A stretch of 40,415 bases of DNA. Source: Candidatus Neomarinimicrobiota bacterium. GTDB lineage: Bacteria; Fidelibacterota; SORT01. The DNA is taken from positions 1-40,415 of the forward strand of contig JACZTG010000020.1 of NCBI GenBank assembly GCA_022573815.1, written 5' to 3'. The number at the start of each line of letters is the position of its first letter. Within the stretch, counting starts at the first letter, position 1. Positions 3,023 through 27,853 of this stretch are shown one piece after another. The position numbers were made by a program, and so were the translations under genes. Below the pieces are notes generated by a model. The model ran no database searches. It saw only the letters and a list, made by a program, of their open reading frames with translations, and had not been told where the DNA came from.

Positions 3023-4060
3023 TTATTTGGCAAACGTTTCCGATAGATAAAACAGTATTAGATTTAGATCATATTCATTCGCAGTTAAACCGTTCAATAT
3101 CATTCTATCGACCAGGGAATTGACTTCTTCTTCAGATGTAGGCGGATTATTTTCAACATTGCTTAAAAAATGACAAGCTGAGCACTTCATTTCATAAACA
3201 CTCGCCGCTTCGGTTAGAGAAATTTTATCCATTTCAAACTCGGTTATAGCAGTTACCTGTCTTGAGGAAACGATTGATTTATCTTCTTCTAGTTTGGACT
3301 TAAATCCTCTGTGCAGCTCGGGAGATAGTGCGATAAGATAAGCCGATACCCACCATTGTTCTTCCAAATATATCGGTTCAGCAACAGTCCTCTCGGACAT
3401 CCTTTTTACAGTTCTGACCCAATCAGATGGTGTGCGGGGTTTGACAAGTACGGTTCGCAAATCGTGGCATTGAACACATTTATTAAGCAGAACTGCTCTT
3501 CCCTTGAGAAGAAATTCTTTCTTGGATAATTTATTTAGCGGTACTTCATCAGAAAACCCTGCGTTAGAGACAAGCCGCTCAATTCTTATTATATTTTTAT
3601 CGCTGAATACATCTCCTCCAACGACACTTTTTCTCAGCTGATATTCTTTAAAAGCCATTGGAACAGATAATCCGGCAAGTAATACTGTCGAGATCATAAG
3701 GAGTGTCCCAAAAAAAGGTGCGAATCTTGATTCTAAATGCTTAAAGAACCTAACAACCATAAATTTCAGAAAGAGAACGATGCCGATCAGGATTCCGAAC
3801 GTTAAATGGATAACTGTTCGAGCAGGAAACTCAATTTGGTAATTCCAAAGACGCGGCACCATTTGCCACATGAGAATCAGATATATTACAATATAAAGAT
3901 ATCCGATGATCCGATGAAGGATGCGGAGAGAAATAGGCGCTTCGCTTTTAAATTTATTATGGTCATAAGGAAATCCCCAGAGCCAATACATTAATATCGT
4001 CCCTGCAAAAGCCAGTCCGACAAAAGCTATTCCTAAAATCGCATTCAGCATCGGATCCAT
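3023..4060 (-). CDS. Four-helix membrane protein with two haem c sites
   Basis: This 345-residue protein has four hydrophobic helices (about 6-28, 48-68, 83-105, 113-135), with His49, His85 and His108 in or next to them that could ligate haem b. A C-terminal exported part carries CVQCH (195-199) and CSACH (293-297). Around the first haem is an (L)KPRTPSDWVRTVKRM segment typical of small cytochromes c that read quinol-linked pools. It is the last gene of the cytochrome locus. It lies directly behind the intrinsic terminator at 4094-4122 with no room for its own promoter, so it should be expressed by read-through. GGGAAG precedes the ATG. A role as a membrane-bound electron shuttle is inferred. 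Confidence 0.85.
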   Translation of the reverse strand: MDPMLNAILGIAFVGLAFAGTILMYWLWGFPYDHNKFKSEAPISLRILHRIIGYLYIVIYLILMWQMVPRLWNYQIEFPARTVIHLTFGILIGIVLFLKFMVVRFFKHLESRFAPFFGTLLMISTVLLAGLSVPMAFKEYQLRKSVVGGDVFSDKNIIRIERLVSNAGFSDEVPLNKLSKKEFLLKGRAVLLNKCVQCHDLRTVLVKPRTPSDWVRTVKRMSERTVAEPIYLEEQWWVSAYLIALSPELHRGFKSKLEEDKSIVSSRQVTAITEFEMDKISLTEAASVYEMKCSACHFLSNVENNPPTSEEEVNSLVDRMILNGLTANEYDLNLILFYLSETFAK

Positions 4061-4146: not shown

Positions 4147-4701
4147 TTACTTTAAACTTCCAATCATTACAAAATCATTGTCAGCTTTTGCACCGTGACA
4201 GGTGACGCAGCCTTTCGGAATTCCCGCGGCATCAACTGTTCCGTCAGGCTTATATTTCGCCCAAAACCAGTCGGCAGCATCAGGATTAAAGCCTTCTACT
4301 TTATACATTACCGTAATTGCGGCAAGAGTTGTATCAGGCATAAAATTTTCTTTGACAATAATTTGACCGTTTTCAAAGGTTCCCTTTTCCGGATCTTGGA
4401 CATTATGAGCTCCGTGCCCGCTAAGGTATGTTCGGATTATGGCGCCATGAGGAGCATTACCTGCTACATGTCCTTCTATGCCGGGCCAAAAGTCCCATTC
4501 TCCATATGGACTTGTTTCTGTAATATATTTCCATAGTTCAGCGGCATCCGCTCCTGGTAGGGTTGCTTCTTCATGCGTAGATTCTGATGTAGAAACCTCA
4601 TCGGCTTCCATTTCTTCTATATCTTTTTTACCTTTACCGCAAGAAATAACTAATAAGAGGGATATAATCAGTATACTTGCAAACATTAAAACTTTGCTCA
4701 T
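4147..4701 (-). CDS. Cytochrome P460-type haem lipoprotein
   Basis: The signal peptide ends in the lipobox LVISC, so Cys21 (numbered from the chosen start) would be lipidated. An acidic linker leads into a cytochrome P460-like domain: WKYITETSPYGEW, WPG, the HGAIIRTYL and NGQIIVKENF strands, then YKVEGFNP and DWFWAKY, ending in the haem site CVTCH (165-169). Family members oxidise hydroxylamine or bind NO, or act as cytochrome c'-beta; which applies here is unknown. I chose the second ATG (184 aa) because AGGAGA sits right before it and overlaps the first ATG at 4713. The gene has its own promoter (4814-4842) and terminator (4094-4122), so it forms a separate unit within the locus. Confidence 0.85.
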   Translation of the reverse strand: MSKVLMFASILIISLLLVISCGKGKKDIEEMEADEVSTSESTHEEATLPGADAAELWKYITETSPYGEWDFWPGIEGHVAGNAPHGAIIRTYLSGHGAHNVQDPEKGTFENGQIIVKENFMPDTTLAAITVMYKVEGFNPDAADWFWAKYKPDGTVDAAGIPKGCVTCHGAKADNDFVMIGSLK

Positions 4702-4794
4702 CGTTCTCCTCATTTGTTTGATATTAAATTAGGTCTTCCAGCTTTTAATTTTAGACCCCTCTTAACACTCCTATACCCGGTGTATCGGTTTCAT

Positions 4795-4862: not shown

Positions 4863-7430
4863 TTAATATTTTTGCTTTTTGTCTATTTCTTTGATTTTCA
4901 ACCAGAGAGAGAATGCCAATACGGTTAAAATCAGCGTGGAGATACCTAATCCCATCTTTCTGAAATTAAATTCGTCTAAAGCGGCTAAACCGATTTTTTC
5001 AGCCTCCCCGACCGCCTTTGTTCCTTTATTTATCTCTTCCTCGACATAATCGAGATTGAACGAATGAATTCGAGTCCGGGATTGCAGCAATGATTGCCTG
5101 GCTTCGCTTAAACTAAAAAGTGCGTCAGAAATTTCTACGCCTTTTTGCTCGGCATCGTGTATAATAGCTCGCGTGGTTTCCATTTTCTCTTTTAGTCCAA
5201 CAATCATATCCCGCATTTTAATAGATATTATACCGCCATCGTCATCTTCTTCGTGACATTCTGCACAAATCGAGCCTTCATGCACTCCAAGCATATCGTC
5301 ATTCGGTTTGGCAATAGCGTGATTCCCATGGCAAGTTTCACATCCCCGCTCCCCTATATCATGAAAGGCTATGGACATAGGACTTTTCTCAAAGAGCTCA
5401 TAATTATTCAAGTGACATGTACTGCAAATAAGTGATTCGTCAGTCACTGTCGGCGGAATCACTCCATGATCACCGTGGCAATCGTTGCAAACAGGAGATC
5501 CCATATCACCTTTTTCATAAAGAGCGATACCGTGGACACTCGTTTTATATTCTTCAAACTGATTTGATGGTAATCCATAAGCAGTCATCAGAGTGCTATT
5601 TCCATGGCAACGGTCACAGGTAGCAGCTATATTTTTAGGGTAAACAGGAGATTTTGGATCTGAAGATGATCTAATACCGTGGGCAAAGTGACAGTCACTG
5701 CATTGGGCAACGTTTTCATCTCCTGCAATTAACATTTTGCCGTGAGCGGATAAACTGTATTTTTCTACCTGGTCAATCGGTATAGATACATTGTAAACTT
5801 TCATATATTCAGCATCACTGTGGCATTTACCGCAAAACTCGGGAATCTCTTCTTTTGCCGGAACTCCAAACCAATCATCAGCATCCCACATAGCTTCATC
5901 TTCGTCATCTGAGTTAGGATTTCCGCCATGACAATCGGCACACGTTAAACCAGCCTCCTCATGGACATCTTTTTTAAATGCCTCTACAGGAGCGAGATAT
6001 TCGTCTTCCAAATCAGAATGACAAATTACACACTCGCTTGTGGAATTGCCCTGTGCGGAAACAGTTGACGGAAACAGAAAACTACTTCCTAACATCAGTA
6101 TACCGACGGCAGTAGGAATACCGCCTTTTTTATGTAAGAGTTTTTTCAATATCTTTTTGTATATCAGAGAAATAAACCATGCTAAAATAATTATGCCTGC
6201 GATGCCGGCTACGAGTATAGACAACCAGCGTAGCATTCCTCCAAAACCAAGTAAAAAGTTGTAAACTCCGCTTGCTCCTTCCGCAGATAATCCAAAGAAA
6301 TTTAACAGAGAAGAAAAACCCATTGCAAGATTATCAAAATAACCTACAAAAGTCATGTAGAGCATATAAAATACCCAGAATTTCGCTCCTAAAATTAGTT
6401 TCCTGTTTTTTCTGCCCCTTTGTACTCGGGTGTCAATAAACGGAACTAAAATCCACAATAGAATCGCAAGATTGAACATCATTATGCCAAACACTTCCCC
6501 CTCCATAAATAGAAAATGCGCAGGTATTATTTTAAGCGTTTCAAACATAAACATAAAAAACCACTCAGGTTTTATTCCGGCGGGAGCAGACGAAAATGGA
6601 TCTGCCTTAATACCAAGTTCCCAGGGGAAATATACAGCCAGAATCGCAAGCACATTAAGAACTATCAGCCATAAAAGAAGGTCTCTCAAAGCGAAGTTCG
6701 GGAAAAATGGCATGCGCTTCATTTCTTTAGGTCTTCCTTCCTTTTCTCCTTTTTCCCATTCGAGAGGAATACTCATTCCCTGCACCTGAACAAGAAACAG
6801 ATGTAAAGACAGCAGAACAAAAAACAGTAACGGCAATATGGCGACGTGCAGTCCGAAGAACCGTGATAACGTCGCTCCGGTGACGTCTTCTCCGCCACGT
6901 AATAAGTTGAGCATAGCATTGCCTACATAGGGAATCGAACCGGCGATATCGGTACCGACTTTTGTTGCGAAAAAAGCGAGTTCATTCCACGGCAACAGAT
7001 AACCAGAGAATCCGAATCCGAGTGAAAGTAATAGCAGTAGCATCCCGGTTACCCATGTCATTTCACGTGGCGGACGATACGCTCTCGTGAAAAAAACACT
7101 GAACATATGAATAAATATCGCTAAAACCATAAGATTTGCCGACCATGAGTGAATAGACCTAATGAGCCATCCAAATTCCACTTTACTCATAATAAATCTA
7201 ATGGATTCGAACGCTCGGTCGGGATCAGCATTGTAATACATCAGCAAAAGAATTCCGCTTAAAACCTGAATTATAAATAAAAATAACGATACGCCGCCAA
7301 AATAATACCACAAGAATTCACCACTGACAGGAACCGTTTTCTTCTTAAAAAACTCTAACCAATCGGAGATTCCCAACCGTTCATCAAACCACTCAAAGAG
7401 ATTCGCTTTGACCCTGTCAATTGTTCCCAT
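4863..7430 (-). CDS. Cytochrome b fused to a nonahaem cytochrome c
   Basis: This 855-residue fusion begins with a full cytochrome b core (about 1-440). The haem b ligand pairs are His94/His108 and His195/His210. The second pair has 14 residues between the ligands, as in b6-type proteins. The quinol-site motif PEW is at 288-290. A hydrophobic segment ending in TVSAQ (about 440-460) looks like a former signal peptide. Then come nine CxxCH sites at 467, 497, 533, 577, 605, 648, 669, 697 and 722, a charged coiled coil (about 735-815) and a final membrane helix (827-845). The product would be the quinol-oxidising or -reducing subunit with its own periplasmic wire. The start ATG overlaps the Rieske stop (TAATG), so the two are translationally coupled. 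Confidence 0.95.
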   Translation of the reverse strand: MGTIDRVKANLFEWFDERLGISDWLEFFKKKTVPVSGEFLWYYFGGVSLFLFIIQVLSGILLLMYYNADPDRAFESIRFIMSKVEFGWLIRSIHSWSANLMVLAIFIHMFSVFFTRAYRPPREMTWVTGMLLLLLSLGFGFSGYLLPWNELAFFATKVGTDIAGSIPYVGNAMLNLLRGGEDVTGATLSRFFGLHVAILPLLFFVLLSLHLFLVQVQGMSIPLEWEKGEKEGRPKEMKRMPFFPNFALRDLLLWLIVLNVLAILAVYFPWELGIKADPFSSAPAGIKPEWFFMFMFETLKIIPAHFLFMEGEVFGIMMFNLAILLWILVPFIDTRVQRGRKNRKLILGAKFWVFYMLYMTFVGYFDNLAMGFSSLLNFFGLSAEGASGVYNFLLGFGGMLRWLSILVAGIAGIIILAWFISLIYKKILKKLLHKKGGIPTAVGILMLGSSFLFPSTVSAQGNSTSECVICHSDLEDEYLAPVEAFKKDVHEEAGLTCADCHGGNPNSDDEDEAMWDADDWFGVPAKEEIPEFCGKCHSDAEYMKVYNVSIPIDQVEKYSLSAHGKMLIAGDENVAQCSDCHFAHGIRSSSDPKSPVYPKNIAATCDRCHGNSTLMTAYGLPSNQFEEYKTSVHGIALYEKGDMGSPVCNDCHGDHGVIPPTVTDESLICSTCHLNNYELFEKSPMSIAFHDIGERGCETCHGNHAIAKPNDDMLGVHEGSICAECHEEDDDGGIISIKMRDMIVGLKEKMETTRAIIHDAEQKGVEISDALFSLSEARQSLLQSRTRIHSFNLDYVEEEINKGTKAVGEAEKIGLAALDEFNFRKMGLGISTLILTVLAFSLWLKIKEIDKKQKY

Positions 7431-7870
7431 TACGATTTCCTCGAAACGAATACTTCACCGTTTTTAATGCGCACATCGTAAGGATCAAGTGGTGACGGCG
7501 GCGGACCACCAACGTTTTTTCCATTTAGATCGTAAATTCCATTATGACACGCGCACCAGATACTTTCCATATCGCTCCGATACTGAACGATGCAATCAAG
7601 GTGCGTACAGATAGCGTGAAATGCTTTTAACTCCCCCTCAGACGTGCGTATCAATATTCCCGGTTTTCGCCCGAACTTAAATATCTGTCCGCTATCGAGC
7701 GGAATGTCGAGTAATTTACCTATTTTGACGGACGAAACTGTGGATTCGGCGATTTTGGGTGGGACAAGAAATCTGATTACAGGATATAATACTGATACAG
7801 TCCATGCGATAAAACCGCCGCCCAATAGAATATTTAAAAAGCTTCTTCGCGTAGTAGATTTTTCACTCAA
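7430..7870 (-). CDS. Rieske iron-sulphur protein
   Basis: This 146-residue protein has a twin-arginine motif (TTRRSFL, 7-13) and one N-terminal membrane anchor (about 14-36), the normal export route for Rieske proteins. The [2Fe-2S] ligands are Cys88 and His90 in CTHLDC and Cys106 and His109 in CACHNG. Cys93 and Cys108 are the expected disulphide. Box 2 reads CACHNG instead of the common CPCHGS, so the redox potential may differ. The start is TTG, preceded by GGGGTGG. With the overlapping cytochrome b gene it forms the core of a bc/b6f-like quinol:cytochrome oxidoreductase. Confidence 0.95.
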   Translation of the reverse strand: MSEKSTTRRSFLNILLGGGFIAWTVSVLYPVIRFLVPPKIAESTVSSVKIGKLLDIPLDSGQIFKFGRKPGILIRTSEGELKAFHAICTHLDCIVQYRSDMESIWCACHNGIYDLNGKNVGGPPPSPLDPYDVRIKNGEVFVSRKS

Positions 7871-7923: not shown

Positions 7924-8610
7924 TTATAACTCACATTCACCGTCTGAGAAGTTTTTGTCTTGATGCTCCTCATAATTTTCACGCCTTATCATTTCATTTT
8001 CTGATATTTTTCCGTCCCACCATGATAATGTTCCGGGGAATCGGCCGGGTTTTAAAAAAATCGAATATAAATGCCATGATAATAATAGTAATCCTACGAG
8101 TAAGCCGTTATAACTATGAAACTCCAACATCCAAACATAAAGTTCCCTTGAAAGATAATTGATGGAAAAGTGATGAGCAAGCCTCAAAAATCCTGTAGCA
8201 AGCATCAAAACTATATATGTACCGATCACCCAATAGGTGACTTTTTCCTGTAACCCGAATCTGCTTTTTTCTTTTAATCCCTTTTGATGTCCGAGCCTGA
8301 TAATCGATTTGAATTCACTTCGCTTTAAAAACATCTGCATAAAATCATTATGGCCGTAGATACTGAAAAGAATATAGAATAGGTGCCAGAATAAAGTTAT
8401 GCCTAAGATAACTCCCGAAATTACGTGAATCTGTCCCCAGTCAACAGTGTTTGTGAAGAAAAAGTATGATTCGGAATTCTGATTCACTCTTATGCTGTAT
8501 AGCACATAACCGCTGAGCATTAATCCGATGACGGACACCGTAAGAGCCATATGCTGGAAAACAACTGATTTTTTAAATCTCACATATTCTCTAATTTCCT
8601 TCCGGCTCAT
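7924..8610 (-). CDS. Cytochrome b, four-helix b561/FdnI-like type
   Basis: This 228-residue protein has four membrane helices (about 16-40, 60-84, 123-143, 160-186) with haem b ligand candidates His20, His62, His76, His165 and His180, the arrangement of FdnI/hydrogenase-type di-haem b cytochromes. The tail WWDGKISENEMIRRENYEEH recurs in cytochromes b encoded beside multihaem proteins. The start ATG overlaps the stop of the 11-haem gene by four bases (ATGA), so the two are coupled and probably form one quinone-linked module. It would exchange electrons between the quinone pool and the periplasmic haems. Confidence 0.9.
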   Translation of the reverse strand: MSRKEIREYVRFKKSVVFQHMALTVSVIGLMLSGYVLYSIRVNQNSESYFFFTNTVDWGQIHVISGVILGITLFWHLFYILFSIYGHNDFMQMFLKRSEFKSIIRLGHQKGLKEKSRFGLQEKVTYWVIGTYIVLMLATGFLRLAHHFSINYLSRELYVWMLEFHSYNGLLVGLLLLSWHLYSIFLKPGRFPGTLSWWDGKISENEMIRRENYEEHQDKNFSDGECEL

Positions 8611-9890
8611 CTATTTTTTCTCCGATATGCCTTATAAATATCACCAAATATCGTTATCAAGATAATACTCATTGTTCCATAAACCAAAATCAGCATAGCA
8701 ATACGAGCAACATTAATTCCATTATCACTTTCACCTGTTGCCGATAGGTGAACTAAAGAAGTTGTGAAATCCGATGACGCGTTGGGATGACAACGCCCGC
8801 AGTTTTCAGATATTTTAACTGCTACTATTTCCGGTGACTCCTCTGTGAACGAGTTGATTTCATGGATTCCGTGGCATGATGAACAATTTTGAAAAGTAAG
8901 ATTCCCGTACAAACTTTTTATACCGTGAAATGACTCGATTTTTTCCGTATATCCTCTTGCATTCAGCGCAAATTGGCTTGTAATCTCTACAGGCGAATGG
9001 CATTCAAGACATTTGTCAGTTAGAAGCGCATCAGATTCTTCTTTTCTAACGAAACTAATATCAGCGTATTCATGCTCAATATGGCAATCAGAACATTTTA
9101 AATTCACATCTCCGATAACTGAACTGATTGACGCCGTTGAATGAACGCTGTTGTTGAACGAAATTAATTCAGTTGTATGGCATTCCCCGCAGAAATCATT
9201 TTCTGTTGAATAATTCTCTTTCCATTCTGCGCCGAGTTCAGCGCTTAACGAATGAATACCATGACATTCGCTACAGGTAAGCGAATTGTTATTCCCGCTT
9301 TTACTAATTTTATCGGAATGTAATCCTTTCGTAAAAAAAACGTTACCATTTTCAGGTTTGGTTTCTCTGTGAGATCTATCATCATTGCTGTCCATCGCTG
9401 CTGTTTGATGGCACTCTGTGCAGGTTGCCCATTCATTACTTTTATGGACTTTTGATAATGGATCTGAAGAACTTCTCATCCGGTGTAGAGCATGGCAATC
9501 TGAGCATTTCGGAATTGATTCAAACGAGGCAATAGATTGTGTGCCGTGCGGACTATTTAAGTAATCACTGTATTCTGTAGAATGACATTCTGAGCATTGA
9601 ACCATTCCCATTGCTTCCGGATGAGGATAGCCGCCCGGATCCGCATGACAACCCGTACATCCCATCTCATTATGCATGGAAATTTCTTTAAAATCGCCGG
9701 GCACGAGAAAGGTGAAGTACTGGTCAGTCAATTCACTTAATTTATCTATGTCGCTGTGGCATTCAAAACATCCGGAATCCTCAATAGTTTCCTGCGCTTT
9801 AGCTATAACGGGAAGTAAAAAAACGCTTTTGACCGAGATCAGAAATAATATTATCAAAAAATAACTGATACAACTCCTACGATTTGTCAT
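8607..9890 (-). CDS. Undecahaem cytochrome c with C-terminal membrane anchor
   Basis: This 427-residue protein has a signal peptide (to about residue 32) and eleven CxxCH sites, at 41, 78, 99, 129, 157, 206, 234, 266, 294, 336 and 364. A single C-terminal helix (396-415) with a basic tail anchors it facing the periplasm. The block CSDCHxxHxxRSSSDP at 129-143 is shared with the nonahaem part of the cytochrome b fusion (577-591 there), so the two are related. It abuts the tetrahaem gene and overlaps the cytochrome b gene. It probably takes electrons from the b subunit and relays them along the haem chain. Confidence 0.93.
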   Translation of the reverse strand: MTNRRSCISYFLIILFLISVKSVFLLPVIAKAQETIEDSGCFECHSDIDKLSELTDQYFTFLVPGDFKEISMHNEMGCTGCHADPGGYPHPEAMGMVQCSECHSTEYSDYLNSPHGTQSIASFESIPKCSDCHALHRMRSSSDPLSKVHKSNEWATCTECHQTAAMDSNDDRSHRETKPENGNVFFTKGLHSDKISKSGNNNSLTCSECHGIHSLSAELGAEWKENYSTENDFCGECHTTELISFNNSVHSTASISSVIGDVNLKCSDCHIEHEYADISFVRKEESDALLTDKCLECHSPVEITSQFALNARGYTEKIESFHGIKSLYGNLTFQNCSSCHGIHEINSFTEESPEIVAVKISENCGRCHPNASSDFTTSLVHLSATGESDNGINVARIAMLILVYGTMSIILITIFGDIYKAYRRKNR

Positions 9891-10451
9891 CTACGGAATT
9901 GGATGAGCTATTTTCGCCCACATTTCTTTGAAAACAAACTCTTTGGGAGTTGGACTATCGGAGTTATGACACCTCTTGCACGTAGATTCATCAGGTATTA
10001 TAAGACCTACACTTGCGGGTTCTATAGTGCCGGCTCTTAACCCTTTCATTACTTTTGATTTGTAATAATCACCGCCGGCGCCGTGACACGCTTCACATCC
10101 TACACCTTCTGTAATATCGAATTTCTTCCCTCGCAATTCCGCTGGAGCATCATAACCCGCTGTATGGCAGCGGAGACATTTAGGGTCTTCCTGTGGATTT
10201 TCCACTCCTCTTTTCTTCGCGACTTCCATTGCTTCAGGAGATCCAAGTAGCTTATAAGCTTTTGAATGAGCGCTGCCTCGCCATTTTTCGAATTGTAATC
10301 CTTTTTTTGCCTTTTTATGGCACATTTTGCACTTGGCAACGCCTATAAATTTGTGCTGTTTTTCATCGCCATCGATGGCTGATGATATTTGCGCTGTGAA
10401 TAACACCAGAAGTGCGATTATAATTATATTTATGCTGTTTCTAATTTTCAC
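9891..10451 (-). CDS. Tetrahaem cytochrome c554-like protein
   Basis: This 186-residue exported protein (signal peptide 1-25) has CxxCH sites at 41, 92, 119 and 158. The surrounding pattern FIGVAKCKMCHK...QFEKWRGSAHSKAY and EGVGCEACHGAGGDYYKSKVMKG matches the cytochrome c554 family, which in ammonia oxidisers takes electrons from hydroxylamine oxidoreductase and is common as an electron shuttle elsewhere. The start is GTG, with GGAG seven bases before. It directly abuts the 11-haem gene. A role as a soluble periplasmic carrier is inferred. Confidence 0.9.
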   Translation of the reverse strand: MKIRNSINIIIIALLVLFTAQISSAIDGDEKQHKFIGVAKCKMCHKKAKKGLQFEKWRGSAHSKAYKLLGSPEAMEVAKKRGVENPQEDPKCLRCHTAGYDAPAELRGKKFDITEGVGCEACHGAGGDYYKSKVMKGLRAGTIEPASVGLIIPDESTCKRCHNSDSPTPKEFVFKEMWAKIAHPIP

Positions 10452-10500: not shown

Positions 10501-10863
10501 TTATTCAGCAAGGTTGTCTTCTACTACCCACTGAACGACCTTATCAATTTCTAAATCTAAATTATAAAAACCATTCATACTGCCGCCTTCTATGGATTTT
10601 TGAACCAAAGTGGACGAGGCATCGCCTGCGGTGGCTTTTGTAATAACTCCCGCGTATGTAGCCATATCGTAATTTGCCTGTGGAGTTGTTCCGGAATGAC
10701 AGGATATGCAATTTTGGTCAAATATCTCTTTCATGTCGTTAGTGTATGTTAAGTTTTCCGCAATTACTTCAGGAGGCGCATCGTTCAATTCACTACACCC
10801 CGTTTGAATCAATAATAAAACTATGGGAATCAAAGTATAAGGAAATCTAACTTTTGCCGTCAT
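10501..10863 (-). CDS. Monohaem cytochrome c lipoprotein
   Basis: This 120-residue protein has a signal peptide ending QTGC, making Cys23 the likely lipidated residue (the -3 Gln is atypical for a lipobox). A single haem site, CISCH, is at 52-56 after the helix MKEIFDQN, the usual start of a small class I-like cytochrome c. There is no obvious distal Met near the C-terminus apart from Met96, so the sixth ligand is unclear. It begins 5 bases after the stop of the 14-haem gene. A lipid-anchored carrier at the outer or inner membrane fits the context. Confidence 0.85.
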   Translation of the reverse strand: MTAKVRFPYTLIPIVLLLIQTGCSELNDAPPEVIAENLTYTNDMKEIFDQNCISCHSGTTPQANYDMATYAGVITKATAGDASSTLVQKSIEGGSMNGFYNLDLEIDKVVQWVVEDNLAE

Positions 10864-10868
10864 TTAAA

Positions 10869-12035
10869 TCAATCTCCTATATCACCGTGACAATAACCGC
10901 AAAATCCTATACCGGAGCTGAATGTTCCAACAGTATGGCAGTTATAACATAAATAATTCTGATCGGAGTGCCATTCTCCCTTCACATCGTTCATAAATCC
11001 GAGTTCATGAGTTTTAGTGTCGTTATTAGGACCAAACGTTATATCCATATGGCATTGTAAACAAACAGGATCTTCTCCATCCAAATCATGGCACGACGCA
11101 CAAAGTTCCATATCTCTTCTCGCCATTTCTCCGTGTCTCGCATTGAGCGATACCCAATCCACGCCGCCGTGCCAAGCCGGCTCAAACCGATGATCATCAT
11201 CTTCCGGATTATGGCACGTGGTGCAAAACTCGTTTGATTCATGGCAAACGGCGCAATCCGAAAATTTACCTTTTGCGTCAAATGAGTGGGTAAATCTGTA
11301 ATCCAGCTGATGCACTCTGTTTAACGCCTGCCCAACAGAGCCACCCGATGTTGTTTCATTCGGCGAATATGAATCTGATAATTCTCCACCCACCAGCACA
11401 AGCTGGTCAACATCGTGGCAATCCTGACAAAAACTCTCCTGATGGCACATCGAACAGTCATTTGTATTAAATCTTGCGTCCAGCGCATGGCTGCGAGACC
11501 AATCGGCTAAATGAGTTGAAGGCTTTAGCAATGCAATATTCGTTTCAGAATGACAGATTGCGCACTCGCTTGACGCACTTTCGTCATTATGGCATTCCAT
11601 ACATTGAGTCATTTCCGGAAGTTGCTCAGCAGCGCTATAGTCAACCTCGTTAATTCCTTTATGGCATATGATACATTCTAAATTGCTATCTTCCAGATGT
11701 AATGAATGATTAAATTTTATCTCTCTTGGTGGATTTATAAATTCCACATATTCTTCCGTAACGTGGCAATATTCACAATCGGTATCATCTTCATCATGAC
11801 ACGTATAGCACTGGGCCATTATAGGAAGTAAATTACTCTCTGCCGTCATACTACTTTCGACATTCACATGACAATCCAAACATTCTGTTCCTACTTCTTC
11901 AGCATGAAACTTATGCGAAAATATTATTACTTTAGAGCGATCCTGCTGATTATCGTATCCCTTAGCGGGTGAATAATCTCCAATTAGGAAGATTGCGACA
12001 ATTGCCACTATGGAAATGCAGTTCAAGACTTTCAC
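10869..12035 (-). CDS. 14-haem periplasmic cytochrome c
   Basis: This 388-residue exported protein has fourteen CxxCH sites (52, 76, 87, 121, 145, 158, 194, 203, 261, 271, 312, 325, 363 and 379), about one haem per 28 residues. Repeats of the c7/c3 type are visible: FSHKFHAEEVGTECLDCH and FNHSLHLEDSNLECIICH each place a HxxH before the haem site, as expected for distal His ligands. The signal peptide spans about 1-26. The GTG start overlaps the stop of the beta-barrel gene by four bases (GTGA), so barrel and cytochrome are made together. That coupling suggests a porin-cytochrome partnership, although no family match to known conduits can be claimed from sequence alone. Confidence 0.9.
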   Translation of the reverse strand: MKVLNCISIVAIVAIFLIGDYSPAKGYDNQQDRSKVIIFSHKFHAEEVGTECLDCHVNVESSMTAESNLLPIMAQCYTCHDEDDTDCEYCHVTEEYVEFINPPREIKFNHSLHLEDSNLECIICHKGINEVDYSAAEQLPEMTQCMECHNDESASSECAICHSETNIALLKPSTHLADWSRSHALDARFNTNDCSMCHQESFCQDCHDVDQLVLVGGELSDSYSPNETTSGGSVGQALNRVHQLDYRFTHSFDAKGKFSDCAVCHESNEFCTTCHNPEDDDHRFEPAWHGGVDWVSLNARHGEMARRDMELCASCHDLDGEDPVCLQCHMDITFGPNNDTKTHELGFMNDVKGEWHSDQNYLCYNCHTVGTFSSGIGFCGYCHGDIGD

Positions 12036-13396
12036 TTTCTATATCTTCCTGCTTTGAACTTATAATTGACCCTCGCAAACAAACGAATATCCTTAGAATA
12101 GCCGAAGAAATCTCTTTGACTGTTAATCTCCTGTGATAAATATTGAACATCAATGTTTGCTGAAACTGTCTTATTAAAATTATGAGTACTGCCTAAAAAG
12201 AGCGTAACAGCATTGTTATTTTTTTCTGCATCAGAATTTATTTTATAGATGGAATAATTTCCTCCGATACGGAGAATACCTTTATTTCTTACCCGAGTAG
12301 AAAATGATAAAGCAGTTGAAACACTTTCTCCGGCATAGCCGCTTCTATTCGAAATCGAAAAAGATATTTTATTCCAATTAAGCCCCGCGTTTATTCGTAA
12401 ACTTGAGTCATCCAAGTTATCAAATTTGACTGTTTCTTTGTAGGAGAGCAGGGATAATCCTCCGGACAACGATAAATTTGAATTGATTCGATAATATATT
12501 CGCCCTGCCGTTTCGCTGAATGTTTTTTGATTGAATACCCAGAATATACTATTTTCATTTAACCGGGGTCTTCTGATCAGATATTCGGCAGTCAGCGTAA
12601 TATTCCTATTATGCCGATACCTGGCTGTAAGATCAAATCGTTGGAAATTGCGAAAACCTGCCTTTCCGGAACCAATAAGAGGAGCGCCATAGTTCAATAA
12701 TATCCGTGAATATATACTAAAGTTATCGTTGATATTTCTTTTTAAAGCAGCGCCAAGAAACCGCTCCTGAGTTGCCTGTCGCCTCAGAAATGTATTAGTG
12801 AATTCGCCCGGTTCCGAATAATCATTGGGCTTTCTTCTGATATCGGAATAGGAAAGAGAGCCATCGAAACCGAATAAATTGTTATACGATGTTTTAATTC
12901 CTAAAACTTGATTGCTCCTTAAATCAAGCAGATCAAATCCCCTGTTAATTGGAATGTTTGTCCCCCAATATCCATCAACAATCAAATTAGCTGTTTTCTT
13001 ATAAATTAAACGAATTCCATCGAAAGCGGCAGTAGCGGAATTAGTGTAAACTCTTTGTCTGCCGATATATAAATAATTTGAATTTAGAAATTTATATTTT
13101 AGGTAAGCGCTGATTATCCTAAATCGAGGATCATTTTGAGATTCAGTAACAATGTCCGTTGAGTAACTTAAATTTGCTATTAAGGAAAGGTTTTTATTAG
13201 CAAGATTATTCGCTTTCAAATATGAGCGTTGATATACTCGAACATGACCCGATGAAGTTGTGGGAGAATCCTGTCTTTCCCAGCTATATATAGAAGTCGT
13301 AAATCTACCGGTGTAAACTTGGGCGAATATTACCTGTGGAACAATCAGCAATATGGCCGCTGTTACTGATATATTACGATACGAAGCGGTATTCAT
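12032..13396 (-). CDS. Outer-membrane beta-barrel paired with 14-haem cytochrome
   Basis: This 454-residue protein has a signal peptide (1-25, ending VIFAQ) and then alternating polar/apolar beta-strands throughout, with many Tyr, Arg and Asn in short turns, as in a barrel of about 16-20 strands. Examples are LKYKFLNSNYLYIGRQRVYT near the N-terminus and a terminal strand IRLFARVNYKF. It contains no Cys and no haem site. GGAAG precedes the ATG. It is the first gene of the cytochrome operon and overlaps the 14-haem gene. A role as the porin sheath of an electron conduit, comparable to MtrB/OmbB but not evidently homologous, is inferred from context; a plain porin is the alternative. Confidence 0.85.
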   Translation of the reverse strand: MNTASYRNISVTAAILLIVPQVIFAQVYTGRFTTSIYSWERQDSPTTSSGHVRVYQRSYLKANNLANKNLSLIANLSYSTDIVTESQNDPRFRIISAYLKYKFLNSNYLYIGRQRVYTNSATAAFDGIRLIYKKTANLIVDGYWGTNIPINRGFDLLDLRSNQVLGIKTSYNNLFGFDGSLSYSDIRRKPNDYSEPGEFTNTFLRRQATQERFLGAALKRNINDNFSIYSRILLNYGAPLIGSGKAGFRNFQRFDLTARYRHNRNITLTAEYLIRRPRLNENSIFWVFNQKTFSETAGRIYYRINSNLSLSGGLSLLSYKETVKFDNLDDSSLRINAGLNWNKISFSISNRSGYAGESVSTALSFSTRVRNKGILRIGGNYSIYKINSDAEKNNNAVTLFLGSTHNFNKTVSANIDVQYLSQEINSQRDFFGYSKDIRLFARVNYKFKAGRYRK

Positions 13397-13532: not shown

Positions 13533-13895
13533 TTAATTATTAACACTTCGAACTATGTTTATAAAATGATTAATCTCTAACGGTTTGTATAGCACAGCAT
13601 CTGCCGCATCTCTTATGCTTTGTCCGGGTTCTTCAACTGATTCGGTATATACATACAATAAGATGATTTTTGTATTAGGACTTTTTTTGTGAATCTTATC
13701 GAGTTGTGCTCGATTCTTCATTTCATCCGGATTAAGATCAAGAATAAGAGTATCTACTTTATGCTCAATGGCATTTTTTACCGCCTCCTCAAGCGCCGAA
13801 GCTGTGATAATGATAAAATCATCTTCAAGAACAAGAGTAAGACTTTTGCTGAGTTCACTATCAGGTTCGTAAATCAGAATCGTACCACTTTTCAA
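13533..13895 (-). CDS. Stand-alone response-regulator receiver protein
   Basis: This is a 120-residue single receiver domain with no output domain. The acidic pair is Glu10/Asp12, the phosphorylation site is Asp53 (in LILDLNP), the switch Thr is 84 and the conserved Lys is 104 (YKPL). All key residues are present, so it should be phosphorylatable. The start is TTG. A sigma54-like site 41-56 bases upstream (13936-13951) separates its transcription from the NtrC-type gene. It lies between that gene and the cytochrome operon and could act as a phosphate sink or as a second target of the histidine kinase encoded at 15433. Confidence 0.85.
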   Translation of the reverse strand: MKSGTILIYEPDSELSKSLTLVLEDDFIIITASALEEAVKNAIEHKVDTLILDLNPDEMKNRAQLDKIHKKSPNTKIILLYVYTESVEEPGQSIRDAADAVLYKPLEINHFINIVRSVNN

Positions 13896-14074: not shown

Positions 14075-15436
14075 TCAGCTTTGGGAATTTATATTAAACT
14101 GCTCCATCTTCCTGTATAATGAAGAAAGAGAAATACCCAACTCTTCCGAAGTTATTTTCTTATCCCATTTGTTTCGATTCAGCACTTCATAGATGTGTTG
14201 TTTTTCAAAATTATTAACTGCCGAGCTTAACTCTGCTGTTGTAGTTTCATCAAAATGATCACCATGAGCTAACACAGAATCCGGAAGCTCGTCAACGGTT
14301 AATTTCTGCCCTTCTGCGAAAATCATCCCCCTTTCAACTATATTTTCGAGCTCTCTTACCTCGCCTTTCCATTGATGATTTTTAAGAGCTGCTAAATAGG
14401 ATTTATCCATCCCCTGAATATTTTTTCCCATCTCGTGATTAAATTTGTCAATAAAATGATCTGCGAGAAGTTTAACATCATCACCTCTTTGCGAGAGCGA
14501 TGGCAAACAAATTTCTACCACATTCAACCGATAATATAAATCTTCCCTGAATCGTCCTTCAGATACCTCTTTTCCTAAATCCTTATTTGTAGCGGCTATA
14601 ACTCGCACATCCAATTTTATCGGAGTTGTTGCACCCACAGGGGTAATTTCAAATGATTCCAATGCTCTTAATAGCTTAACCTGAAGATGAATCGGCATTT
14701 CGCTAATTTCATCGAGAAAAAGCGTTCCTTTATCAGCTGCCGTAAACAGACCTTTTTTGTCCTTCACCGCACCGGTAAAGGAGCCTTTCAAATGACCGAA
14801 TAATTCCGATTCTATCAGCGTCTCGACTATTGCCCCACAATTTACCGTTATGAGCGGCTTTCCACTCCTTGGTCCATTATAGTGAATCGCTTTGGCGACA
14901 AGTTCTTTCCCTGTGCCGGTTTTTCCCGTGATCAGCACAGTGCCTTCAGAATTGGAAACTTTTTTGATTATGTCATAAACATTTTGCATAGCCTCGGACT
15001 TACCGATGATATTGGAAAAATCATATTTTTTATTTACTTCCCTTCTTAATATCTGATTTTCTTTTGCAAGCGATTTATACTCGAAAAGTCTTTTCACTTT
15101 CAGTATCACATCGTTAAAATCCAGCGGTTTTATCAGATAATCGTAAGCGCCGCTTCTAAGAGCAGAAACGGCGGAATCAATTGAAGCATAAGCGGTAATA
15201 ACAATTGAAAAGATATCACTGTTCTTAGCCGATATTTCTTCGAGCAGTTCAATACCGCCCATTTTCGGCATCTTAAGATCAGTTATCACAAGATCATAAT
15301 CATGCTCGCTTATCTTTTCCAAAGCATCTATTCCGTTAATAGCTCCATCAACTTCATACTTTTCCTCTTTAAGTATATATGTAAGAGAATCCCTGATTAT
15401 CTCTTCGTCATCAACAATTAATATTTTTTCGTTCAT
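14075..15436 (-). CDS. NtrC-family sigma54-dependent response regulator
   Basis: This 453-residue regulator has three domains. The receiver (1-120) has Asp9/Asp10, phospho-site Asp53 and Lys103. The AAA+ domain (about 142-370) has Walker A GKTGTGKE (171-178), the sigma54-contact loop GSFTGA (218-223, Ser replacing the usual Ala) and Walker B GTLFLDEI (237-244). The C-terminal Fis-type helix-turn-helix (about 410-450) has the EELGISLSSLYRKMEQF signature. It activates transcription by sigma54-RNA polymerase. The ATG overlaps the kinase stop (ATGA), so kinase and regulator are a coupled pair. Two sigma54-type promoters in this window (13936, 27566) are candidate targets. Confidence 0.95.
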   Translation of the reverse strand: MNEKILIVDDEEIIRDSLTYILKEEKYEVDGAINGIDALEKISEHDYDLVITDLKMPKMGGIELLEEISAKNSDIFSIVITAYASIDSAVSALRSGAYDYLIKPLDFNDVILKVKRLFEYKSLAKENQILRREVNKKYDFSNIIGKSEAMQNVYDIIKKVSNSEGTVLITGKTGTGKELVAKAIHYNGPRSGKPLITVNCGAIVETLIESELFGHLKGSFTGAVKDKKGLFTAADKGTLFLDEISEMPIHLQVKLLRALESFEITPVGATTPIKLDVRVIAATNKDLGKEVSEGRFREDLYYRLNVVEICLPSLSQRGDDVKLLADHFIDKFNHEMGKNIQGMDKSYLAALKNHQWKGEVRELENIVERGMIFAEGQKLTVDELPDSVLAHGDHFDETTTAELSSAVNNFEKQHIYEVLNRNKWDKKITSEELGISLSSLYRKMEQFNINSQS

Positions 15437-16911
15437 GCAGTTTTCCTTTTTGATCTAAGCGGTATTGAAACAGTGAATGTTGTTTCGCTTCCCTCTTCGG
15501 ATTTTACACTAAGGCTGCCGCCAAAAGAATTAATAATTCCTCTGCTTACCCAAAGTCCGAGACCCGTTCCCTTTCCAACTTCTTTGGTAGTGAAAAACGG
15601 TTCAAATATCCGTTCTATTTTATCGGAAGAAACGCCGATTCCGTCGTCAATAACCTCAATTATAACACTGTTATTGACTTCTTTGGATTTTAATTTAATC
15701 ACGCCTGCGCCGTTTTTGACGGCATCAAGAGAGTTAAGGATTAAATTCAGTATTACCTGAAACAACTGGTCGGCAATTAACACCGGTTCCGATAACTTAG
15801 CTGCCAGTTCTATTTTAAAATCCACATTTTTCGATTTTTCATCAATCAAAACAATTCTTACCGCTTTTTCAATTTGGGCGTTAATGTCGGTAGGTTCTTC
15901 TTCTAAATCTGATGGTCGAGAAAAATCCACTAAATCTCTTATGATTTGAGTGATTCGTCTTGTTTGGCCTATAATCAAATCCAGCTTATCTCGAGTAGCG
16001 CCCTCCTTGGATTGTCTTTGCAGCACCTGAACAAGGGAGGAAATGGAAGTGAGCGGATTTCCGACCTCATGAGCGATTCCGGCCGCCAGTTGACCCAGCA
16101 CAGCCAATTGTTCAGACCTGCCTATTTTTTGACGTAGTGTAAGAAATTCTGTCATATCCTGCCCAATTGCAAGCACACCGCTGATATTGCCATTTTCATC
16201 TTTCAGTGTGGTGATACTCCACAAAATGGTTCGCGTTTCTCCTGATTTAGTCAATATTTCGTTTTCATATTGTAGAGGGCCGCCCGATTGCAATAAGCTA
16301 TTATAGACAGCCTCATCATTTTTTCTTTTTTCCTTATCGGAAAATAGTTCAAACCAGTTTTTATTGATGACTTCTGTTTCTTTATAGCCGAGAAATGACT
16401 CGCAATAAGAATTAAATATGATGATTTTTCCCTCTGTATCAAGCGATATGACGAGACTGTTGACCGTGTTGAGCAATGATTCAGAGAAACGCTTCTCAAC
16501 AACCAACTCTTTGCCCAACTGATATTTTTCGGATAAATCAATAGTTAAACCCATATATCCCGTTAATTCCTCGCTTTCGTAAATTGGCGTAATCGATACA
16601 TAAACGGGAATTTCAATACCATCTTTTGTTTTATTAAAAAGTTCACCTTTCCACTGATTTTTGGTTAATAGACTATTCCACATCTCGACATAAATATTAT
16701 CTTCAGTCACCGATGATCGTAAAATTCTGTTAGTTTTTCCAAGAGCCTCATCGGATGAATATCCATACATTTTGGTAAACGCCGGATTAATATCCTTAAT
16801 TATACCATCTTTATTTGTGAGGACTATCGCGTCTGTGGAATGATGAAAAGCATTTGAGAGGCGTTGAATAGTTGCCGTGGATGGTGAAGCTATTGTTTTA
16901 TTTATAACCAT
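15433..16911 (-). CDS. Soluble PAS-PAS histidine kinase
   Basis: This 492-residue kinase has no membrane helix. Two PAS domains (about 15-130 and 142-255) are followed by a HisKA dimerisation helix with the phospho-His in AAGIAHEVGNPLTSI (His281) and a HATPase_c domain with N-box NLILNSLDAVKNGAG, G1 DDGIGVS, the F-box FEPFFTTKEVGKGTGLGLWV and the final G-box. The PAS domains carry no CxxCH, so the ligand (haem b, flavin or none) is unknown. It is the cytoplasmic partner of the overlapping NtrC-type regulator. Sensing of redox or respiratory state is inferred from the neighbouring cytochrome genes. Confidence 0.93.
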   Translation of the reverse strand: MVINKTIASPSTATIQRLSNAFHHSTDAIVLTNKDGIIKDINPAFTKMYGYSSDEALGKTNRILRSSVTEDNIYVEMWNSLLTKNQWKGELFNKTKDGIEIPVYVSITPIYESEELTGYMGLTIDLSEKYQLGKELVVEKRFSESLLNTVNSLVISLDTEGKIIIFNSYCESFLGYKETEVINKNWFELFSDKEKRKNDEAVYNSLLQSGGPLQYENEILTKSGETRTILWSITTLKDENGNISGVLAIGQDMTEFLTLRQKIGRSEQLAVLGQLAAGIAHEVGNPLTSISSLVQVLQRQSKEGATRDKLDLIIGQTRRITQIIRDLVDFSRPSDLEEEPTDINAQIEKAVRIVLIDEKSKNVDFKIELAAKLSEPVLIADQLFQVILNLILNSLDAVKNGAGVIKLKSKEVNNSVIIEVIDDGIGVSSDKIERIFEPFFTTKEVGKGTGLGLWVSRGIINSFGGSLSVKSEEGSETTFTVSIPLRSKRKTA

Positions 16912-25735: not shown

Positions 25736-27112
25736 TTAAAATTTTATTTTTGTTTGCACGAAATAAAAGCTGGCGTCATTTTCCGATGCAGAAACTACAT
25801 CATCTACATATGCGCCTTTGAAAAATTGACTTACTCCAACTACGCCGACAATTCTTTTATTATAAAACGGGTACTTTACCGTTATATCGATTTCACTTCC
25901 GACATAAGAACTAACATCGGCTCCGTTTGCATTTCTCATGGCAGCCGAGCCGGCATTATACCATGCATCATTACTTGCCCGGTGAAGCCAAAACCCCTGG
26001 TATGCGACTCTTAAGCCTAATTTAGGAAGAGGATTATTTTTAAATGTCACTTCAAAATTATGAATATTCTGAAGAGAAAATAAATCCATATATCCGTAAT
26101 AGGCGTGATTTAGAGGGTATAAATTATCAAACGTAGAATGGGTTTGATCATTAGGTACACCATCTCCGCTGCCGAAATTATAGGCGGTGCCAACTTTCGC
26201 ATTATTAAACACACCGGTTTTATATTCAGTGCCAATATGAGCCATAAAAGCTTTATGGGTAAAACCGCTATAAGTTCCACTTTGAGCTGCTGCTTCCCCT
26301 TCGAATAACCATGAATCTTTAACAGTAGTAAACCGTGTTCCAAAAGTATAAACATTGTCATCAATTTGGCTTTCACGTCTTAACATCAAGTAACTTTCCC
26401 ACTGAGTATTCGGAATGGTTATTTTATCGGTATAATATAGAATATGAAACTGACTGTTAAAGTATCGACTTTTGGTCCTTGAGTAATCATTGATGCGATT
26501 AGGCGAGACAGGGACTAAACGAGAAGCTATAATATCTAAATTTCTGCTCTTCGCATTGCCTACGGTTACTCGTACCCCGTCCCATACACGCGCTGTATTT
26601 ACCCATTCCAATGATGCAACGAGCCGTTGCGTTCCGAGGTTGAATTTCTGCCTTCCTGCTCTAATCTTAACCGGTGTTCTGTTTGCGGAAAAATTAACGT
26701 CCACAAATCCTTGATGGAGATCAAATTGATCTGCAAATATATTTGGTGTGGCGTCCCGATTGATACTTGGAATAGCGGTAATTTCTTCTCCCATTACACG
26801 CGCATCCTGTCCTTCTAAAAATATTTTAACATTTTCTGAGGCTTTCCAAGAAATATTCAATCTTAACTGGGTCAGCATATAATCCTGATTGCTGTCAACA
26901 AAATTGAAACTGTTCTTGTCTTCTGCCCTTACTCTTAGGGACCCGCCAATTTTTAGATTTGGAGATATATTATGCCAATCAGTTTTGACTTGCTCGGAGC
27001 TTTCTTCTTTTTTTTCTTCATCAGAGTCGGCTGCTATCAGCAAACCTGGTATCGTTAGCATAAGTGAAAGTAAAAGACTTATACCTATTTTTATTAAATG
27101 ATTTCTTTCCAA
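25736..27112 (-). CDS. Alginate-export-family outer-membrane porin
   Basis: This 458-residue protein has a signal peptide (1-28) and a charged linker (DSDEEKKEESSEQ), then a beta-barrel of the alginate-export (AlgE/Alginate_exp) type. Family signatures are LTQLRLNISWKASENVKIFL, EGQDARVMG, LHQGFVDV, RAGRQKFNLGTQRLVASLEW and ARVWDGVRV. The last strand ends in Phe (VQTKIKF), as expected for BAM-dependent insertion. Start TTG behind GGAGGGG. Substrates in this family vary widely, so alginate itself is not implied. A frameshifted relative lies upstream (27180-27522). The gene heads the functional part of the chemosensory operon. Confidence 0.88.
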   Translation of the reverse strand: MERNHLIKIGISLLLSLMLTIPGLLIAADSDEEKKEESSEQVKTDWHNISPNLKIGGSLRVRAEDKNSFNFVDSNQDYMLTQLRLNISWKASENVKIFLEGQDARVMGEEITAIPSINRDATPNIFADQFDLHQGFVDVNFSANRTPVKIRAGRQKFNLGTQRLVASLEWVNTARVWDGVRVTVGNAKSRNLDIIASRLVPVSPNRINDYSRTKSRYFNSQFHILYYTDKITIPNTQWESYLMLRRESQIDDNVYTFGTRFTTVKDSWLFEGEAAAQSGTYSGFTHKAFMAHIGTEYKTGVFNNAKVGTAYNFGSGDGVPNDQTHSTFDNLYPLNHAYYGYMDLFSLQNIHNFEVTFKNNPLPKLGLRVAYQGFWLHRASNDAWYNAGSAAMRNANGADVSSYVGSEIDITVKYPFYNKRIVGVVGVSQFFKGAYVDDVVSASENDASFYFVQTKIKF

Positions 27113-27179: not shown

Positions 27180-27522
27180 AACTTTAATATCAAAATTGTT
27201 TTAGATATTTTAAAGGAGCGATCGATATTATGCCGGCCCACAGAACCCATGAGCGGTTGATTAGCATACGCTGATTCCTGCCTGCCAATCCTAATATCAA
27301 GGCCCTTTGTGTGAATACGTCTGAGACATTAAAGTATGCCTGATGGTAATCAGTGGCATCCGCGCTTCCGTCATCAAGTGTATTGGTCTCAGATCCAAAA
27401 ATCCGCGCATCCTGAACTTGAACGAAAGCATAGCTGCCCTCATTATTGAATTTCAGGTTTAGACGGCTCCTCAGATAGCTGATTCCATAATTTAGCACTA
27501 TACCGGTAAGCATTTTATTCAT
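27180..27522 (-). pseudogene. Frameshifted remnant of an alginate-export-type porin
   Basis: The open frame from ATG 27522 (AAGGAAT before it) reads YLRSRLNLKFNNEGSYAFVQ, QDARIFGSETNTLDDGSAD and YHQAYFNVSDVFTQ, which align with the intact porin at 25736-27112 (LTQLRLN, GQDARVMG, LHQGFVDV). Near 27301-27316 the frame shifts: another frame continues as KGLDIRIGRQESAYANQPLM and GSVGRHNIDRSF, matching IRAGRQKFNLGTQRLVASLEW of the intact gene. The gene is therefore a relic with a lost signal peptide, a frameshift and no C-terminal barrel. Its promoter (27566-27581) is intact. Confidence 0.8.
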
Positions 27523-27853
27523 TTATATTCCTTGCGGAGTTTCTATATTATAATAATTATTGTATTGCAATTTATGTGCCATTTTGTATTAACTTGGCAG
27601 GATGAACTACCGATTGATAACTAATTCAGTATTAAATCTATAACGATGACGACGGAATAATTATACATTACAGTTATTTTCGATGAGAGGATCAAAAGGA
27701 GAAATATTAAAAATAATCTATTTATATACATTTTTATTATCTTAAAACTTAACTATTTGACAAGAAATGCAACATATCGACAATATACTGCCACCTTTAT
27801 ATAGAGATAATAGGGACTACACACTATTTCAATGATGTAAGATATTAATTAAT
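27523..27853. other. Intergenic region holding the sigma54 promoter
   Basis: This 331-base AT-rich region contains the sigma54 site at 27566-27581. On the plus strand, AAAAGGAG (27694-27701) precedes a 33-codon frame that could only start at ATT (27706). A TTGACA at 27757-27762 has no convincing -10. No upstream activator-binding repeats are obvious. Confidence 0.4.
27566..27581 (-). promoter_or_regulatory. Sigma54 promoter, perfect consensus
   Basis: The minus strand reads TGGCACA-TAAA-TTGCA, matching TGGCAYR-N4-TTGCW at every position. Transcription would start near 27555, 33 bases before the ATG of the porin relic. It should drive the relic, the intact porin, the repeat protein, the chemoreceptor and cheW. 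The NtrC-type protein encoded at 14075-15436 is a candidate activator. Confidence 0.85.

What the first reader, a model, noticed from the sequence alone, without database searches (positions are those of the whole stretch)
10869..13396. Beta-barrel and 14-haem cytochrome made by coupled translation: possible new outer-membrane conduit
The barrel stop and cytochrome GTG start overlap (GTGA), and a monohaem lipoprotein gene starts five bases further on. Porin-cytochrome conduits pair exactly such proteins, but the barrel does not look like MtrB or OmbB and the cytochrome has c7/c3-like repeats. It may be an independent solution to the same task.
Basis: inference. Interest (0 to 1): 0.7.

Follow-up and report, generated by a model that had tools for sequence, protein, structure and literature searches.

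The report
Outer-membrane electron conduit with one-haem port
A marine-type bacterium carries a three-gene kit (a protein barrel, a 14-haem wire and a surface-anchored one-haem protein) that probably carries electrons through its outer membrane; a relative of this kit was already predicted in Ignavibacterium, but here the usual many-haem surface protein is reduced to one haem and the kit sits in a run of genes with its own quinol-oxidising machinery.

Summary
Barrel (12032-13396), 14-haem cytochrome (10869-12035, GTGA overlap) and monohaem lipoprotein (10501-10863) lie head to tail on the minus strand. The barrel-cytochrome pair holds in 39 of 39 testable loci across Fidelibacterota (Neomarinimicrobiota), Ignavibacteriota, Calditrichota and KSB1, nearly always with a haem lipoprotein beside it. 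AlphaFold2 gives the barrel 22 strands with good confidence. It has no detectable sequence relation to MtrB or to any Pfam/NCBIfam substrate porin. The best reading is a porin-cytochrome (Pcc) conduit. It is not an unknown independent invention: Shi et al. 2014 already listed the Ignavibacterium album cluster IALB_1840-1837 (porin plus 14-haem cytochrome) as a divergent Pcc. What looks new: (1) presence in Fidelibacterota, with no earlier report found in the held library; (2) a surface partner with one haem instead of 6-28, explained by a fusion protein in a related locus that joins both forms; (3) the gene run continues through periplasmic and inner-membrane cytochromes to a Rieske/cytochrome-b complex, a complete predicted quinol-to-surface path. 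Direction of flow and insertion of the cytochrome in the barrel are inferred, not shown.

The parts
12032..13396 (-). Outer-membrane beta-barrel, 454 aa with signal peptide, predicted 22 strands; putative conduit sheath
10869..12035 (-). Periplasmic 14-haem c-type cytochrome (GTG start, GTGA overlap with barrel stop), c7-type repeats, 12 conserved distal His; putative wire through the barrel
10501..10863 (-). Monohaem class-I-like cytochrome c lipoprotein (lipobox TGC at Cys23, CXXCH 52-56, Met96 invariant in nine homologues); putative surface electron port
9891..10451 (-). Tetrahaem cytochrome c554-like periplasmic protein; putative shuttle; counterpart of the tetrahaem gene beside the barrel in Ignavibacteria (IALB_1840 by gene order)
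8607..9890 (-). 11-haem cytochrome with C-terminal transmembrane anchor (inner membrane predicted)
7924..8610 (-). Cytochrome b561-type membrane subunit (Ni_hydr_CYTB), overlaps the 11-haem gene; putative second quinol dehydrogenase with it
7430..7870 (-). Rieske [2Fe-2S] protein
4863..7430 (-). Cytochrome b (b6/petB + petD) fused to a 9-haem c-type domain; putative quinol oxidase feeding the conduit
4147..4713 (-). Lipoprotein with cytochrome P460-like domain and one CXXCH; same strand, role unknown
3023..4060 (-). Membrane-anchored dihaem cytochrome; same strand, role unknown

Best explanation
The three genes encode a porin-cytochrome (Pcc-type) outer-membrane electron conduit of the Ignavibacterium-album type. 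A 22-stranded barrel holds or docks the 14-haem cytochrome, which brings electrons from the periplasm across the outer membrane to a lipid-anchored monohaem cytochrome on the cell surface. The downstream genes supply the electrons: the Rieske / cytochrome b-9-haem complex and the 11-haem / b561 pair oxidise quinol in the inner membrane, and the tetrahaem c554-like protein carries electrons across the periplasm to the conduit. Shown here: gene content, conservation, predicted barrel fold, haem and ligand counts, domain fusion. Inferred: that the cytochrome sits inside the barrel, that the lipoprotein faces outward, and that flow is outward to an external acceptor (about 65% versus inward). The confidence below is for the conduit reading, whichever the direction.
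For: Barrel and cytochrome are immediate neighbours in 39 of 39 testable loci, found by searching with either partner, although order varies: the lipoprotein lies upstream of the barrel in KSB1, Calditrichota and L022, downstream elsewhere. The paralogue in the same genome keeps the triad. Pairwise distances of barrel and cytochrome mirror each other (r 0.96, 23 loci, best of 2000 permutations 0.46). AlphaFold2 barrel: mean pLDDT 84, pTM 0.77, 22 strands, within the 18-22 motifs reported for Pcc porins. Calculated backbone radius 20.0 A, versus 15.5 for 16 and about 24 for 26 strands. Lumen-facing residues are more conserved than lipid-facing ones in 19 of 22 strands (sign-flip p 0.00025), as expected if a partner fills the pore. 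Fusion in L022: residues 10-127 match the window's monohaem lipoprotein (HMM 8e-21, blastp 7e-14) and 131-363 match the Ignavibacteria multihaem surface lipoprotein (38% identity, 8e-49). The profile of the cytochrome matches a dodecahaem wire protein and alternative complex III subunits in the PDB. Among 13 genomes (own plus 12 relatives), a close cytochrome b homologue occurs in exactly the five with the 14-haem type conduit or its 11-haem variant in G010. Published precedent: IALB_1840-1837 as a Pcc cluster.
Against: No structure of the complex could be predicted: the cytochrome model was poor (pLDDT 50). One haem at the surface is unusual for a conduit that reduces minerals, and no other multihaem surface cytochrome was found in this genome. 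In G002 the cytochrome b-9-haem gene and the conduit lie on different contigs, so their linkage is not obligatory. All functional evidence is by analogy; no member of this lineage has a mutant phenotype in the papers read.
Confidence: 0.8

Rival explanations
1. The same conduit works inward: electrons from an external donor (for example Fe(II) or a partner cell) enter through the monohaem lipoprotein and barrel-cytochrome and are passed to quinone or to a terminal oxidase.
For: The genome has two COX1-family genes. Known Mto/Pio conduits run inward (established knowledge). A single haem with an invariant candidate Met ligand suggests a relatively high potential.
Against: The gene run contains two quinol-oxidising type modules (Rieske/cytochrome b and 11-haem/b561). 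Ignavibacteria with the homologous conduit include an Fe(III) reducer, Melioribacter (PMC6137239). No MtrB-type system was found; cyc2 was not searched.
Confidence: 0.25
2. The barrel is an ordinary solute porin, co-transcribed with periplasmic cytochromes that act on the imported substrate; no electron crosses the outer membrane.
For: Foldseek finds only generic porin-like barrels (best hits FimD, AlgE, Occ; TM about 0.4-0.5). There is no direct evidence of barrel-cytochrome contact.
Against: No Pfam or NCBIfam substrate-porin match; only the generic OMP_b-brl model passes its cut-off, over 75 residues. Strict pairing with the cytochrome in all testable loci, a haem lipoprotein in nearly all, and the published Pcc assignment of the I. 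album cluster.
Confidence: 0.1
3. The barrel exports or anchors the cytochrome as an extracellular filament, rather than holding it as a fixed wire.
For: The cytochrome resembles the dodecahaem wire protein 3ov0 in its first half.
Against: One-to-one gene pairing and mirrored evolution fit a fixed complex; no filament-forming cytochrome family matched; no secretion accessory genes beside it.
Confidence: 0.04

Closest known systems
Pcc cluster of Ignavibacterium album, IALB_1840-1837 (Shi et al. 2014, PMC4245776)
   Same: Porin, 14-haem cytochrome of about 400 aa, an outer cytochrome and a periplasmic cytochrome in one cluster; described as divergent from other Pcc. The Ignavibacterium sp. locus L031 shows this order and its barrel and cytochrome are homologous to the window's.
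   Different: Outer partner is a multihaem lipoprotein there (6 haems in L031) and a monohaem one here; no Rieske/cytochrome b complex was seen beside the Ignavibacteria loci read here (by ORF list only).
Geobacter OmbB-OmaB-OmcB and ExtABCD / ExtEFG conduits
   Same: Barrel plus periplasmic cytochrome plus lipoprotein cytochrome in one cluster; reported strand numbers of 18-22.
   Different: Geobacter outer cytochromes have 5-12 haems; no sequence relation could be tested, as no OmbB/Ext sequence was available.
Shewanella MtrCAB
   Same: General logic of a barrel with an internal multihaem wire and an outer cytochrome.
   Different: MtrB is a larger barrel (26 strands in the solved MtrAB structure, own knowledge; 28 predicted motifs in PMC4245776), with no sequence match; MtrA and MtrC each have 10 haems; the 14-haem cytochrome does not reach the MtrA/DmsE family cut-off.
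GSU1996-type dodecahaem cytochrome (PDB 3ov0; the GSU1996 name is own knowledge) and alternative complex III subunit ActA
   Same: c7-type FxHxxH / CXXCH repeats; best PDB relatives of the cytochrome profile (E 9e-28 for 3ov0, 1e-15 for 6btm subunit A).
   Different: These are not barrel partners; only the first half of the 14-haem protein aligns.

Membership tests
Pcc-type porin-cytochrome conduit | Outer-membrane barrel, periplasmic multihaem cytochrome and outer cytochrome encoded together | tested here: met
   the outer cytochrome has only one haem
Pcc-type porin-cytochrome conduit | Barrel of 18-22 strands | tested here: met
   22 strands in AlphaFold2 model, pLDDT 84; range
Pcc-type porin-cytochrome conduit | Periplasmic cytochrome with 5-14 haems | tested here: met
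   14 CXXCH
Pcc-type porin-cytochrome conduit | Multihaem outer-surface cytochrome | tested here: not met
   one CXXCH only. Not a strict criterion: clusters accepted as Pcc in Anaeromyxobacter and Kuenenia lack any outer cytochrome gene
[quoted passage not shown]
   needs biochemistry
I. album-type Pcc lineage | Homology of barrel and 14-haem cytochrome to the Ignavibacterium proteins | tested here: met
   L031 barrel 28%, cytochrome 39% identity to window; IALB sequences themselves not held, matched by genus, gene order, length and haem count
Mtr/Mto/Pio (MtrB family PF11854) | Barrel matches PF11854 | tested here: not met
   no PF11854 match in the genome or 20 relatives; none in hmmscan
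Mtr/Mto/Pio (MtrA/DmsE TIGR03508) | Periplasmic decahaem cytochrome over family cut-off | tested here: not met
   17 bits against cut-off 192
OmbB / ExtB / ExtE porin families of Geobacter | Sequence or profile relation of the barrel | not testable with these tools
   no sequences available; PMC7399161 reports OmbB-like porins in two Ignavibacteria genomes by its own HMMs
Substrate-specific porins | Match to a specific porin family or close fold | tested here: not met

The most novel reading that the evidence does not exclude
In Fidelibacterota the Pcc conduit has been rebuilt with a single-haem, possibly His/Met, surface port in place of the multihaem cytochrome, and is wired to a Rieske/cytochrome b-9-haem quinol complex, giving a proton-motive Q-cycle route to an external, relatively high-potential partner in a phylum for which no such system was found described.
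Probability: 0.4. Interest if true: 0.65.

Novelty: new variant of a known kind. Interest (0 to 1): 0.45.

Why it matters
Outer-membrane conduits are known in detail mainly from Shewanella and Geobacter. This lineage spreads one homologous barrel-cytochrome pair over at least four phyla of the FCB group while the surface cytochrome changes from 1 to 28 haems, which makes it a natural series for asking what the surface module adds and how small a port can be. A complete quinol-to-surface path in a Fidelibacterota genome suggests that part of this little-cultured phylum exchanges electrons with its surroundings.

Tried and rejected
A single-sequence scan of genome contigs with the barrel found nothing; the cytochrome alignment worked. 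AlphaFold2 of the 14-haem cytochrome was not usable beyond residue 165, so no fit of wire into barrel could be modelled. Foldseek gave only generic barrels. A search for the multihaem surface domain elsewhere in this genome found none, as did MtrC-type domains outside the window. A first CXXCH pattern was mis-typed and void, then repeated correctly. Sigma-54 sites: matches with two mismatches are not above chance. Searches for reports of Marinimicrobia with extracellular electron transfer gave no paper in the held library. Weak barrel hits G241, G146, G159, G036, G161, G237 and the fragment in G243 were not examined. The idea that the barrel-cytochrome pair is an invention with no precedent was dropped after reading PMC4245776.

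Full report
What is there. The window is the whole of contig 20 of a 2.39 Mb draft genome. Its phylum is Candidatus Neomarinimicrobiota, now Fidelibacterota, as shown by named relatives such as L021 (65% identical cytochrome). On the minus strand lie, in order of transcription: a barrel (12032-13396), a 14-haem cytochrome (10869-12035), a monohaem lipoprotein (10501-10863), a tetrahaem c554-like protein (9891-10451), an 11-haem membrane-anchored cytochrome (8607-9890), a b561-type subunit (7924-8610), a Rieske protein (7430-7870), and a cytochrome b fused to nine haems (4863-7430), then a P460-like lipoprotein and a dihaem membrane cytochrome. The junctions from barrel to cytochrome b are tight: GTGA overlap, 5-base gap, 49-base gap, adjacent, 4-base overlap, 53-base gap, one-base overlap.

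Conservation. Searching relatives with the barrel and all species genomes with the cytochrome gave 40 loci holding the barrel. In 39 of them the cytochrome follows directly on the same strand; in the last the contig ends inside the barrel. Apart from its nearest relative L021 (55% and 64%), barrels are only 20-31% identical to the window's and cytochromes 35-41%. A haem lipoprotein is next to the pair in nearly all loci whose flanks are held (not in L047; L023 is cut upstream), downstream in Fidelibacterota and Ignavibacteriota, upstream in KSB1, Calditrichota and L022. Its haem count varies from 1 to 28. Barrel and cytochrome distances mirror each other at r 0.96 over 23 loci; this shows co-inheritance and is compatible with, not proof of, physical contact. 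The genome has a second triad on contig 16 with an 11-haem cytochrome.

Barrel. AlphaFold2 with 24 sequences gives mean pLDDT 84, pTM 0.77 and 22 strands. For n = 22, shear 24, the standard barrel formula gives a backbone radius of 20.0 A, between a 16-strand porin (15.5) and a 26-strand barrel (23.5-24.1). Barrels of 22 strands enclose plugs of about 150 residues in TonB-dependent transporters (established knowledge), so the pore is not too narrow for part of a multihaem chain. Lumen-facing positions are more conserved than lipid-facing ones in 19 of 22 strands (p 0.00025); this would also hold to some degree for an empty porin. A conserved RxPxxxxNSIFxVF loop (275-288) lies between strands 13 and 14. 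No PDB sequence matches the barrel profile and Foldseek finds only generic barrels with TM about 0.5 or less. PF11854 (MtrB) is absent from this genome and 20 relatives.

Cytochrome. Fourteen CXXCH motifs; 12 further histidines conserved in at least 89% of 27 homologues, plus Met142 (85%), so nearly every haem has a candidate sixth ligand. The first half aligns with the dodecahaem protein 3ov0 and with alternative complex III subunits. The contig-16 type has lost the last two haems. The structure model is not reliable.

Lipoprotein. Nine homologues share the lipobox Cys, CXXCH and an invariant Met, the pattern of a class I cytochrome c. The key link is L022, whose upstream lipoprotein is a fusion: residues 10-127 match the window's monohaem protein (HMM E 8e-21, blastp 7e-14 over 106 residues) and residues 131-363 match the Ignavibacteria and Calditrichota multihaem lipoproteins at 35-41% identity. 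This ties the window's small lipoprotein to the surface cytochrome of the conduit. No stand-alone multihaem domain of that kind is in this genome, and closely paired CXXCH motifs occur only at the two conduit cytochromes. In L022 the Met is not evident at the aligned place, so the axial ligand is uncertain.

Electron supply. Cytochrome b homologues of the high-similarity type occur in the same five of thirteen genomes that have the 14-haem type conduit or its G010 variant; in some genomes of families f3, f11, f15 and f21 a molybdopterin/FeS/NrfD complex with 4- and 5-haem cytochromes also flanks the conduit (domains checked in L079). In G002 the cytochrome b-9-haem gene lies on another contig than the conduit. 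A similar association of an NrfD-type cluster with a porin-cytochrome complex was reported in one metagenome-assembled genome (PMC10732223). I infer outward flow from quinol; inward flow remains open, as the genome also has two COX1-family genes.

What is known. Shi et al. 2014 (PMC4245776) listed the cluster of I. [quoted passage not shown] Locus L031 (Ignavibacterium sp.) reproduces this order with homologues of the window's proteins. Later papers repeat the Pcc assignment for Ignavibacteria and Melioribacter. The finding therefore belongs to a known kind. I found no report of it in Fidelibacterota in the held library, which is limited to open-licence papers.

Verdict. Observation confirmed; interpretation as a conduit well supported; claim of a wholly new or independent solution not supported. 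The one-haem port, the fusion that explains it, and the gene run to a Rieske/cytochrome b complex make it a new variant of a known kind.

Noticed in passing
L015:7897-10631 (G000 contig 16); also L013, L046: Second conduit triad in the same genome: barrel, 11-haem (12 in relatives) cytochrome, monohaem lipoprotein, followed by an OPT transporter, a LonB-like protease and a 2-oxoacid:ferredoxin oxidoreductase in all three family members.
   Followed up: partly
L021:5404-6534, L016:6364-7326, L079:14799-15788, G006:C55:716-1459, G011:C82:13470-14261: Protein with an ethylbenzene-dehydrogenase haem-binding domain (PF09459), often a lipoprotein, sits beside the conduit in several Fidelibacterota genomes; three members elsewhere in this genome. 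Could be another surface haem protein.
   Followed up: partly
L078-L082, L017, L032: Molybdopterin / FeS / NrfD complex genes directly upstream of the conduit in other families of the phylum, with 4- and 5-haem cytochromes.
   Followed up: partly
window 14075-16911: PAS histidine kinase and NtrC-type regulator upstream of the barrel on the same strand, plus a lone receiver domain (13533-13895); Ignavibacteria loci L027, L028, L034, L038 carry a PAS-like gene just after the conduit. Homology between them not tested.
   Followed up: no
window 27566-27581 (-): Perfect sigma-54 promoter consensus TGGCACATAAATTGCA 44 bases before ORF 27190-27522.
   Followed up: no
L027:9210-11834, L033:9112-11889, L050:3524-6178: Outer lipoproteins with 25-28 haems beside the same barrel-cytochrome pair, the large end of the surface-module range.
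   Followed up: no
window 4147-4713: Lipoprotein with a P460-like domain and one CXXCH at the end of the electron-transfer gene run; role unknown.
   Followed up: no
window 25736-27112 (-): A second, unrelated outer-membrane barrel: Alginate_exp family (PF13372).
   Followed up: no
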